64,000 nt of DNA from Neofusicoccum parvum (Eukaryota > Ascomycota > Dothideomycetes > Botryosphaeriales > Botryosphaeriaceae): positions 248,001 to 312,000 of the forward strand of contig CP087218.1 of NCBI GenBank assembly GCA_020912385.1, in the 5' to 3' direction. The notes beneath the pieces are model-generated. The model worked only from the letters and a program-made list of their open reading frames with translations, was not told where the DNA came from and searched no databases. Within the stretch, counting starts at the first letter, position 1, and the number at the start of each line of letters is the position of its first letter. The translations under genes were made by a program, and so were the position numbers. Below, piece by piece: positions 40,495-44,446 of this stretch.

Positions 40495-43400
40495 ATGACA
40501 CAGTCTTCGAATGCAAGTAGGTCACAGGACCTTGGTTTGGAAATATGCGAGGAGAACACCGCACAAGGCCACCTTGTCCTTTCCGACCTAACCCCAAAAC
40601 CCATGGAGTTGTTGGCCGAAACCTTTCTGGACGTCGCAGGAAAGAACATTACTGTTAAAGACAAGGTGAAGAGAGATTTCGTAAGAGCTCTGAGTACTTT
40701 CGGGGTGCAGCTGTGCACTTTGGTGGCCCACATTCGGCTGTTTGACGCTGAAGGCGGGGCTAGACTTGAAAACCTGGACAACGACCTGCAACTCAAAGAC
40801 TTACTTCTAAAGACAGAGGGCCTTCTGCGTATGTGATCGCTGTTTCATTGATGAATTCGGCCGTAGCAGGCACTAATCTGATCGGCCCGCAGAAAGTATC
40901 CAACCGTCCAACAGCAGAGACACGACCAATTTCACCATCCTGAGGAGCCTTGCGGCTCAGAGGAATAGAGTTCAGGAAAATCACACTATCGAATCAATCA
41001 GGAATGCAACTGAAACGTTAATCAGTGATGGAAGTCAACCACTCGGTCGATTCGCGTCACTTCCAAAGGACCTGATCGATATCACGAACATAGTTCTGGA
41101 GAATCAAAATCACGAGAACTCGGATGATGACGATGAATGCTCGGATTACGTGTTTGTTGACCGTCGCCCGGAACCCCCAAGCAGGCTGGATCTTCAGCTT
41201 TACAGGTCTTTTCTGAACCGTGGCTTGTGCACATGTGTGGAAACTGAAGAAGTTCGTCCACAAGAGACTGGACATTGGTCATTGCTTCGCTTCGGCCTAA
41301 AACCAACACTCATCGATACGGGAGACCTCGCAGAAGAATACGACATGGCCTTTTCAGCTTCCCGGAACTCTCACACAGATTGGCAAAACACAAACGTGCA
41401 AGTGGAACATATTTGGGGACCCCGGACATGGTACGTCAATTCTCTACATCTTTTTTTTTCTTTTAATTTAAGTTTGGCTTCAGAAATGAAGCTGATGCAG
41501 TTCAAGGCTCAGGTTACGTTTTCCCTTTGCCTCTCGGCGAAGTCCACTGTCGTCCATAACCACCAGTCAAGAGCAGCCACTTCCGGATGGTACCTTTTGC
41601 GATCTGATTAGGCATCCTACCAACACACGATTACGACTAAAGGTGGTTGACGAAGATATCAAATATTTCGTCAATGGGGATTTCCTCCATCATAGCTACG
41701 CGCCTGGTCGCGGTTTGGGCCTTGGAGAAATTCTTGAAGAAAGAGTCCTGTGATTCAAGATGAGGCCTTTCCTTGCGTTGAGCATCGCCACATTGGTGTG
41801 GCGGTTTTATAATTCCGAATGGATGAGCACCACATGGACCCACTACGATATCCGCTTTTTGGAGGAGCGGCCGTCTCCGGAAAGCCCGGGGGCGTTTTTC
41901 TGTAAACCATTCCTTTCAGTCGAGTTCAGTTCTTCGAATGTCGGAGAATTGGAGTGCCGTTACCCCACCCATCGATTTTCCCGACCAATTGGAGGACTTT
42001 TTCACAGTTATCCTATCGTTCTGAGCTTAGGCGTCATGCTTCTCGAAATCGCGACCGGCCAATGCCTCGAGACGCGTAACAGGCCCGATCAGTGGGACGC
42101 TCCGACTATGAACTCGATTTACACGCTTTGCTTAAAACGCCTAGACAGTTTCGGATCAGAAGACTGGGCTCGGGATTGTAATTACCGTCTTTACAGAAAA
42201 GCCGTGAAGAGCTGCTTGGATTTGGATCTATTCCAAGGGGTTCCATTCAATTCTCGTAACCCGGCTGAGCTCCTTGAAGAGCGCCGGGGAATTCTGTACG
42301 AGGAAGTCGTCCGCCCGCTCAAGATACTGGCTGAAACCACAAGGTGGTCGTCGAAATGGAAAGATGTCGAACGTATGCCACTCAGCGTCATACGAGACAA
42401 AGCATCATTTTCAGAGGGCTCTCCATCAGTCCAGCCAGCACCGACAGCGGCTGATAATCTCTATATCGCTCCTCCGCCTGGTGTAGCACTTTTTCTAGCA
42501 TGCGAGACACGGTTTGTCCCCCTTCAATGTCTGGATTATGTCGTTTGATCTAATTGCTTAATTTCTAGAATCCGGAACTCTGCTGACTGGCTGAAGCGGT
42601 TCGATGACTTAAACGAGATATTTGAGAGAGCTGAACAGGGGAAGCCAAACAAAAACTCAATCAGGATTGCTGTCTTGGATACAGGTTGCGATCCTGATGC
42701 TCCTTATCTTTGCATTCTCGAATCTGATGAGCCGTTTGAGCAATGGCATGATTACGTGTCTGATGGCTCGCCAAGCATGGTGGATACTGACGGTCATGGC
42801 ACCCATGTTGTCACTCTTTTAATGCGCTTGGCACCAAAAGCGCAATTCTTCGTCTCTCGGATCGCAAAGGATAGTGCAGGAATCGAATAATCCAAAGGAA
42901 ATGTAGCGAAGGTAACTGTTTGCGGTGCACCTTTGAATAGTCGTAGTCTAACGAAACCTCAGGCAATCCATCAAGCTGCCTTCGAATGGGATGTCGATAT
43001 TATTTCAATGTCATTTGGGTTCACGAGGGGCCCTGTTGAGCACGACACCGGACGCGACGAGGCCCTCTCAGCAATCAAGGATGAGATAGCCGACGCAGTC
43101 CATCACAAGAAAGGGAAAATTCTCTTCCTTGCTGCTGCGGCCAATGATGGATTGAATGGAGAAGAGATGTTTCCCGCTACGGATCCTAATGTGATATCGA
43201 TCCGCGGCACAGACCATACAGGGGACATCGTTCAAGCTTACAACCCACCAGGGGATGGTGACCTTTTTGGAACACTCTCAAAGGAGGTACCATCGAATGG
43301 AATAGGTGGTGCTGCAACCATTCACATGTCTGGAAGCTCTGTTGCCACGCCTATCGCTGTCGCTATAGCCGTGCTGATGCTCAGGTATACGGAAAGAAGC

Positions 43401-43586
43401 GGGGAATTCTCTCAGAAGGCATTGGACAACTTGAAAACACAAAGGGGCATGCTCGAGGCATTTCGGGTTCTTGGCCGAACAACTCATATGCCTGGCTACC
43501 ACTATGTGCAACCGTTTTGGTATTTCTTTCACAAATCACATAGCGATCGTGTGGATCTTCTCAGACCAAGACTCTCGTTCATTTGA
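40495..43586 (+). pseudogene. Helical-domain plus subtilisin-like (S8) serine protease gene with two in-frame stops
   Basis: Homology-guided exons are 40495-40828, 40893-41430, 41501-42511, 42569-42911 and 42963-43586; the introns (64, 70, 57, 51 bp) are all GT-AG in matching phases, 950 codons in total. Codons 1 to about 620 form an alpha-helical region like the fungal DUF7580-type domain (SIATLVWRFYNSEW, ALGVMLLEIA-like segment). The S8 domain follows with all three catalytic sites: Asp in VLDTGCD (about 665), His in DGHGTH (703) and Ser in GSSVATP (868). Two in-frame stops interrupt it: TGA at 41751-41753 (codon 375) and TAA at 42888-42890 (codon 735, between His and Ser). Splice sites and the rest of the frame are intact, so loss looks recent. 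It ends 17 bp from a gasdermin-like gene on the other strand; S8 proteases of this kind activate fungal gasdermins. Confidence 0.75.
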
Positions 43587-43603
43587 TTGTAGACTAGATC
43601 TTC

Positions 43604-44446
43604 TCACTCTTTTCCCTCAATACGAATACTCATTCCTTCATTCCCTTCCACTTCAATACCTCGAATAGACTTCTCTTCGCCCAGGTCCTGCGAAAGCTCA
43701 GCCTGCGTGACCAAGCCAGGCTCAACTTCGATCTTGTGACCGTCTTGATCCTCTTCGTCAGCCAGAAACCCAGACTTTGGATAAAACTCATCGACCGCAA
43801 TCGCCTTGCCCCTCCAGCCCTTGCGAGCAATCTTCAGCAGCTGGTACGCCAGGACGATGTCGTTGCCAGCACGGAGCGAATCCCCTTCTTTCCTGGTTCT
43901 CGAGCCACCCGCCTGGACGCCCACGGACACGTCGGCCGTGACAGCCGCCGAGCCTCCAGCACGGATCGCCCGCTTCGTCTCGACCTCCGAGGACAGCTCG
44001 AACCCCTCTGCGATCTTCAGCCCGGTGACCACGTAAACCGGGTGCGACCAGTGAGGCCAGCGCATCGCCGCCTTCACCCGATCATCCTTGAGCAAGTCCG
44101 CCACGGATTCCTCCGACGGATCCGTTCGGAAGGACAGGGTCTTGAGCGTGTTCATTGTGTATCGCCGTGCGACGTTCCTGCTGCCTTCCACGCCGTTGTC
44201 GACGCTGACCACCTAGAGGATCTGCGCGGTGATGGAGACGTTCAGATCTCGGCCCGCGTCGCGCTGGATGGTCCGGTCGAACTCGGTTGATTCGTCAACG
44301 GAGGGCCATTGGGCTTGGGGGATTGTGGTCAACGGGCGATGAGGGCAGAGCGCATGGCCAAGGACGTTGCCGAGGGCGATGGCGCCGTCTGGTTTGAAGT
44401 CGAGCTTGGGCGCGAGGATGTAGGTCTTCCTGGGCTCGGCATCCAT
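43604..44446 (-). pseudogene. Fungal gasdermin-like (HET-Q1/RCD-1 type) pore-forming protein gene with one in-frame stop
   Basis: This is a single exon of 281 codons, close in size to known fungal gasdermins. The N-terminus has YILAPKLDFKPDGAIALG, and the middle has YVVTGLKIAEG followed by an alternating beta-strand segment. All are features I associate with the fungal gasdermin family, which makes membrane pores after proteolytic cleavage in allorecognition cell death. TAG at 44215-44213 (codon 78) interrupts the frame; before and after it the reading continues in the same frame without other damage. Read as it stands, only a short N-terminal peptide would be made. The gene is tail to tail with the protease gene, 17 bp apart. 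The assignment is by memory of motifs; an alternative would be an unrelated beta-rich fungal protein. Confidence 0.65.

What the first reader, a model, noticed from the sequence alone, without database searches (positions are those of the whole stretch)
40495..44446. Subtilisin-like protease and gasdermin-like genes tail to tail: a cell-death module in decay
A two-part protein with a helical N-terminal domain and an S8 protease domain ends 17 bp from the end of a gasdermin-like gene. Protease-gasdermin gene pairs are known in fungi (HET-Q1/HET-Q2), where the protease cleaves the gasdermin to trigger incompatibility cell death. Here both genes have complete splice structure and catalytic motifs, but carry in-frame stops (TGA 41751, TAA 42888, TAG 44215). 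Joint inactivation would be expected if one partner is harmful or useless without the other.
Basis: partly seen in the sequence, partly recalled or inferred. Interest (0 to 1): 0.88.

Follow-up and report, generated by a model that had tools for sequence, protein, structure and literature searches.

The report
Broken fungal protease–gasdermin cell-death pair
Two neighbouring fungal genes, a sensor-like protease and the pore-forming gasdermin it probably once switched on to kill the cell, are both disabled by stop codons; the pair belongs to a known kind of fungal self-destruct module, seen here in decay.

Summary
On the + strand (40495-43586) lies a helical–DUF7580–subtilase (S8) protease gene; on the - strand (43601-44446) a fungal gasdermin. 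They lie tail to tail, 14 bp apart. A profile of the gasdermin family finds RCD-1 (E 3.8e-10) and HET-Q1 (E 0.0012) among solved structures, and a relative's model folds like RCD-1. Stops TGA 41751, TAA 42888 and TAG 44215 sit in conserved exons of the assembly; no plausible intron removes them; there is no RIP signature and I found no frameshift. So this is a pseudogenised member of the published fGSDM/HET-Q2-like protease clusters.

The genome adds more. Five gasdermin loci were found, each with an S8 gene or relic nearby. Three are like the window's, and all three are damaged: both genes stopped here; a compensated frameshift in one gasdermin; a protease relic beside an open gasdermin frame. 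Two are of a TPR–S8 type, with open frames. A full-length DUF7580–S8 gene stands alone on C3. Damage is thus often one-sided, against the idea that the partners must die together. The likely history is birth-and-death, as in the published 'pseudogenization' route to het-Q-like loci. An allorecognition role is unproven. Known kind; moderate interest.

The parts
40495..40828 (+). protease exon 1 (start codon uncertain; a later in-frame Met near residue 37 fits relatives better)
   Evidence: alignment
40893..41430 (+). protease exon 2, N-terminal part with the FDM.FSAS..WQ-like motif
41501..42511 (+). protease exon 3, DUF7580 (start 41501 or 41513; both keep the frame)
   Evidence: PF24476 E 3.7e-20
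41751..41753 (+). in-frame stop TGA inside DUF7580 (residue 375 of 949 in my model)
42569..42911 (+). protease exon 4, S8 domain with catalytic Asp and His
   Evidence: PF00082 E 2.4e-4 (20.9 bits, just under the 21.8 cut-off for this piece alone)
42888..42890 (+). in-frame stop TAA after the catalytic His (residue 735)
42912..42962 (+). intron at a position shared with the C13b and C3 relatives
42963..43586 (+). protease exon 5, S8 domain with catalytic Ser; stop codon at the end
   Evidence: PF00082 E 1.2e-9
43601..44446 (-). fungal gasdermin gene, single exon, 280 codons plus stop
   Evidence: fold of relative P0003
44213..44215 (-). in-frame stop TAG in the gasdermin (residue 78 of 280)

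Best explanation
The locus is a pseudogenised two-gene cell-death module of the fungal gasdermin/HET-Q2-like protease kind. In its working state (inferred from family knowledge) the 949-residue protein would be a cytosolic receptor. Its N-terminal and DUF7580 parts would sense a cue and release the subtilase, which would cut about 50 residues off the C-terminus of the neighbouring 280-residue gasdermin, and the freed N-terminal part would form pores and kill the cell. In this strain neither full product can be made by ordinary translation: the protease would stop before the S8 domain and the gasdermin after 77 residues. The lesions are nonsense mutations in otherwise open, spliceable genes, not RIP. 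They are one stage of the birth-and-death of such modules in this genome, where the three modules of this type that were found are damaged in different ways and the two TPR–S8-type modules are open. Shown: homology, architecture, pairing, the stops, and the states of the other loci. Inferred: the mechanism, the order of loss, and that the window allele is silent in nature.
Against: No reads, transcripts or second strain were available, so an assembly error, a segregating allele or a recoded stop cannot be excluded. The protease keeps 50 of 53 conserved columns, which is average, so it shows no decay beyond its stops. The gasdermin's root-to-tip distance is not long (24th percentile of the public tips), and the two open TPR-type gasdermins have longer terminal branches still, so the long terminal branch may only reflect thin sampling. 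The family set was chosen by similarity to the query. Three stops with no frameshift is mildly unusual for free decay: P about 0.03-0.11 under recalled indel/substitution ratios of 0.10-0.05. The difference in lost conserved columns between gasdermin and protease is weak (7 of 41 against 3 of 53, Fisher p 0.097). Cleavage of this gasdermin by this protease is untested.
Confidence: 0.86

Rival explanations
1. The stops mark one null allele of a locus that is still polymorphic in the species (a het-Q-like or immune locus under balancing selection). Other isolates would carry a working protease, a working gasdermin, or both. (This can hold together with the best explanation.)
For: het-Q1 and het-Q2 are idiomorphs at one locus, thought to derive from a protease/gasdermin cluster (PMC10890737 passages; PMC12881547 section 20). 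A 'pseudogenization' model for this is in print (PMC10197012 passages). The frames are otherwise open, the catalytic residues are kept and the protease shows no excess loss, as in a recently lost allele.
Against: No other allele was found: no protein closer than 40% identity to the window's products came up apart from the window's own piece. The gasdermin has lost more conserved positions than any of 51 relatives, which suggests longer neglect.
Confidence: 0.4
2. The stops are not lesions but programmed: A-to-I RNA editing (premature-stop correction) or readthrough would make full proteins only at one stage, such as fruiting-body formation.
For: Premature-stop correction by editing is known in Fusarium, and strong editing during fruiting in Sordariomycetes and Pezizomycetes (PMC7306014 passages). 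All lesions are stops, with no frameshift found. A death module that is silent during growth would make sense.
Against: Editing needs three stops corrected, one of them TAA, which would need two edits. None of the relatives aligned carries Trp at these positions (8; 11). The window gasdermin groups with Diplodia proteins (support 0.86), a weak hint at Dothideomycetes, a class that the passages read do not mention; other genes point elsewhere (the C16 gasdermin to Geoglossum, the nearest proteases to Sordariales), so the class is not established. The bases after the stops (TTC, TCC, GTG) do not resemble the readthrough contexts I recall (CTA, CARYYA).
Confidence: 0.04
3. Repeat-induced point mutation (RIP) made the stops.
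For: Several stops in two adjacent genes without frameshifts is what RIP can do (recalled).
Against: Dinucleotide indices are those of normal coding DNA, and a DNA search found one copy of each gene in the genome.
Confidence: 0.02
4. The stops are base errors in the assembly and both genes work.
For: No reads were available.
Against: Three independent substitutions, each to a stop, in under 4 kb of a 44-Mb, 18-contig assembly is unlikely; the gasdermin also shows unusual residues just before its stop.
Confidence: 0.05

Closest known systems
HET-Q1/HET-Q2 of Podospora anserina
   Same: 280-residue gasdermin (HET-Q1 278) beside an S8 protease; weak sequence match of the gasdermin to HET-Q1 9uv9 (E 0.016 for the 202-residue piece alone; E 0.0012 by profile).
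   Different: HET-Q2 is a short 388-residue protease (PMC10989679 passages) and the two genes are idiomorphs in different strains (PMC12881547 section 20). Here both lie side by side, the protease is 949 residues with DUF7580, and both carry stops.
Q2-like (Q2L) protease / fGSDM two-gene clusters of fungi
   Same: Adjacent S8 multidomain protease and gasdermin; about 80% of fGSDM genes are so clustered and about 63% with S8 proteases (PMC10197012 section 15). Fusion to predicted kinase-like domains is already mentioned (PMC12881547 section 20).
   Different: In carrying stops in both genes, and in the DUF7580 domain, a name found in no paper of the library searched.
RCD-1 of Neurospora crassa
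   Same: Same family and fold.
   Different: RCD-1 is activated by its other allele, not by a protease (PMC12881547 section 20).
C13b, C16 and C3 loci of the same genome (L028, L029, L034)
   Same: DUF7580–S8 type and/or close gasdermin type; C13b is also tail to tail.
   Different: C13b: gasdermin out of register over about 20 codons, short protease form. C16: open gasdermin frame, protease relic without the Asp/His half and without DUF7580. C3: full-length protease, no gasdermin found.

Membership tests
fungal gasdermin (fGSDM) | sequence homology to RCD-1/HET-Q1 | tested here: met
   profile E 3.8e-10, 2.3e-8 and 1.2e-3; the best stretch for RCD-1 is profile positions 84-214, for HET-Q1 12-202
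fungal gasdermin (fGSDM) | gasdermin pore-domain fold | tested here: met
   model of relative P0003, not of the window gene itself
fungal gasdermin (fGSDM) | short C-terminal inhibitory tail removed by a protease | tested here: inconclusive
   53 residues follow the Phe aligned with the conserved AFL motif, near the 40 lost by HET-Q1 (PMC10989679 passages); the cut itself is not testable
fungal gasdermin (fGSDM) | membrane pore formation | not testable with these tools
   needs expression
HET-Q2-like (Q2L) S8 protease | S8 domain with Asp-His-Ser | tested here: met
HET-Q2-like (Q2L) S8 protease | next to (within 10 kb of) a gasdermin gene | tested here: met
   14 bp
HET-Q2-like (Q2L) S8 protease | cleaves the neighbouring gasdermin | not testable with these tools
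   needs expression
working protease-gasdermin module | open reading frames in both genes | tested here: not met
   TGA, TAA, TAG; no rescuing intron found. So it is filed as a pseudogenised member, not a working module
het-Q-type allorecognition locus | alternative alleles or idiomorphs in the population that cause incompatibility | not testable with these tools
   one strain only
RIP-mutated sequence | RIP dinucleotide indices | tested here: not met
   CRI -0.77 and -0.89
MLKL-like pseudokinase (for DUF7580) | kinase-fold homology | tested here: inconclusive
   only PDB profile hit up to E 10 is MLKL at E 1.4; Pkinase at E 0.2 in 1 of 10 members; the model search was filled by subtilisins

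The most novel reading that the evidence does not exclude
The three stops are a switch, not decay: both genes of a self-destruct pair are held silent by in-frame stops during growth and read as full proteins only at one life stage by RNA editing or readthrough, so that protease and pore appear together only there.
Probability: 0.04. Interest if true: 0.85.

Novelty: new member of a known kind. Interest (0 to 1): 0.42.

Why it matters
Protease–gasdermin clusters are the fungal counterpart of pyroptosis, and a published model holds that allorecognition loci such as het-Q arise when such a cluster loses parts. This one genome appears to hold several stages side by side: both genes stopped, gasdermin damaged, protease reduced to a relic, and a receptor without gasdermin. 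A population survey of these loci would test that model directly. The DUF7580–S8 receptor, an architecture seen in 89 of the 97 public relatives, has no described function that I found (one search by the name DUF7580).

Tried and rejected
RIP as the cause and hidden introns removing the stops were tested and rejected. A DNA duplicate of either gene: none found. Pfam has no model that names these gasdermins: of the 9 members of A1 scanned, the best hit was an unrelated viral model at E 0.0085; NCBIfam gave nothing for the two gasdermin sequences submitted (P0003 and the 202-residue window piece). A prokaryote contig scan: 57 stretches matched a pattern, none confirmed. DUF7580 as a kinase fold stayed undecided: the model search lists were filled by subtilisins, and the MLKL hit is not significant. 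The primary paper (Clave 2022) is not held, so its content is taken from reviews. First reading of C13b as an intact sister pair (my note) was withdrawn after the frames were compared. First reading of the C3 protease as stop-bearing was withdrawn: the matched exons are open and meet at an intron. I could not identify the species; even its class is a guess.

Full report
What is there. The window is part of contig C13 (248001-312000) of a 44-Mb genome in 18 contigs; the genes have introns and the named relatives are ascomycetes. The protease gene runs 40495-43586 on the + strand with five exons, and the gasdermin runs 44446-43601 on the - strand in one exon. The two terminal stop codons are 14 bp apart. 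The protease product has an N-terminal part, DUF7580 (PF24476, E 3.7e-20) and a subtilase domain (PF00082 on both halves, E 2.4e-4 and 1.2e-9). It aligns along its length with public DUF7580–S8 proteins, apart from a few in-frame inserts and a poorly conserved N-terminus. The triad and the oxyanion Asn are kept. In the model of relative P0122 the N-terminal part is helical.

Are the stops real lesions? They lie in conserved stretches. For each stop I listed in-phase GT-AG segments of 40-150 bases that would remove it: 7, 8 and 7 candidates, none with a fair donor and a branch site. RIP indices are those of ordinary coding DNA. I found no frameshift in 2847 + 843 coding bases of the model. A 3.1% nonsense share means three stops correspond to about 97 neutral substitutions, with a very wide range (20-284). 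With indel ratios that I recall rather than measured, the chance that all three disabling events are nonsense is about 0.03 to 0.11, so the pattern is only mildly odd.

How decayed? Against 51 relatives the gasdermin keeps 34 of 41 near-invariant columns, a share of 0.83 that lies below every relative tested by leave-one-out (lowest 0.88); the C13b and C16 gasdermins each keep 38 of 41, and the two TPR-type ones 27 and 28, being from another branch. Its terminal branch is longer than those of all 120 public tips, but its root-to-tip distance is only at the 24th percentile, and the two TPR-type gasdermins of this genome have longer terminal branches, so this evidence is soft. The protease keeps 50 of 53, which is average. 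This may mean that the gasdermin was neglected earlier, but the direct comparison is weak (Fisher p 0.097).

The rest of the genome. A search with one relative, P0003, found five gasdermin loci; more divergent ones could have been missed. All five have an S8 gene or relic nearby. (a) The window pair. (b) C13b, 1.68 Mb along the same contig: tail to tail, gap 12 bp. The protease is a short form with intact triad that seems to begin near L028:5,770, beside an ankyrin gene. The gasdermin frame is open, but about 20 codons before RPVYMVTG are out of register compared with its 57%-identical relative P0015. (c) C16: open gasdermin frame, 57% identical to P0112; about 0.4 kb upstream is a protease relic in which no Asp/His half and no DUF7580 was found and which changes frame; I group it here by its gasdermin and its S8 similarity. 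(d, e) C4 and C10: divergent gasdermin and S8 genes, with TPR-like ORFs just upstream of the S8 exons and no stops in the matched ORFs; the TPR matches are at or below Pfam's cut-offs, and joining TPR and S8 ORFs into one gene is my inference. In addition, C3 holds a full-length DUF7580–S8 gene with no gasdermin found in the 10 kb fetched or elsewhere on that contig. The C16 relic is closest to the C3 protease (43.6%, against 25-33% for the other S8 genes), so C3 could be a moved or duplicated partner. The three gasdermins of (a)-(c) are 38-40% identical to each other and 25-30% to those of (d, e), which are sisters. Damage is thus seen in three of three modules of the first type and none of two of the second. 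The numbers are small, and no test of significance was made.

Public pairs. By my reading of the listed rows, a gasdermin and a DUF7580–S8 hit share a contig length in at least two species: Trichoderma ceciliae (P0048 and P0132, tags 378459 and 378462, contig 392549) and Lasiosphaeria ovina (P0111 and P0122, contig 9163860, so large that it says little). This suggests that the pairing is conserved, but it was not checked on DNA.

Mechanism. Inferred from published work: a receptor protease removes a short C-terminal tail from the gasdermin, which then makes pores (PMC10989679 passages; PMC12881547 section 20). In the window gasdermin 53 residues follow the Phe of the conserved motif. The cue is unknown. 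DUF7580 may be a pseudokinase: the only PDB profile hit is MLKL, at E 1.4, which is not significant. A review mentions kinase-like fusions to such proteases.

Known or new. Reviews say that about 80% of fungal gasdermin genes are clustered with proteases and that the family shows signs of birth-and-death evolution (PMC10197012 section 15). They describe het-Q1/het-Q2 as idiomorphs that likely came from such a cluster (PMC10890737 passages; PMC12881547 section 20) and propose a pseudogenization route (PMC10197012 passages). So a decayed pair is a new member of a known kind. The searches listed no paper whose title or abstract start reports such a broken pair; I saw passages of six of the papers listed there and did not read the others. 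The primary paper was not readable here.

The reading of the sequence was very good. The claim of necessary joint loss is weakened by the one-sided damage elsewhere in the genome. The incompatibility claim needs alleles and tests.

Noticed in passing
L034 (G000:C3:1227001-1237000), 3885-6907 minus strand: A full-length DUF7580–S8 protease gene with open matched exons and intact triad but no gasdermin found in the 10 kb or elsewhere on C3; it is the closest of the local S8 genes to the protease relic at C16.
   Followed up: partly
L029 (G000:C16:235001-245000), 5529-7502: Protease relic keeping only the Ser half of the S8 domain, near a run of C and with a frame change, about 0.4 kb upstream of an open gasdermin frame.
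   Followed up: yes
L028 (G000:C13:1678001-1688000), about 3150-3225: Gasdermin whose frame is open overall but is out of register for about 20 codons compared with relatives; either two compensating indels or an assembly error.
   Followed up: partly
L031 and L032 (G000:C4 and C10): Two divergently arranged gasdermin/S8 pairs with TPR-like ORFs before the S8 exons and open frames; their gasdermins are sisters of each other.
   Followed up: partly
window 38274-39873, minus strand: Gene with a weak C2H2 zinc-finger match (PF12756, below cut-off), about 0.6 kb from the protease start and divergent from it; integrity not examined.
   Followed up: no
window 45178-46956, minus strand: Long ORF (593 aa), Thr/Ser-rich, no Pfam match; next long ORF beyond the gasdermin.
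   Followed up: no
window 45001-46000: Only 1-kb block of the 63 tabulated with a slightly positive RIP composite index (0.03); outside the finding.
   Followed up: no
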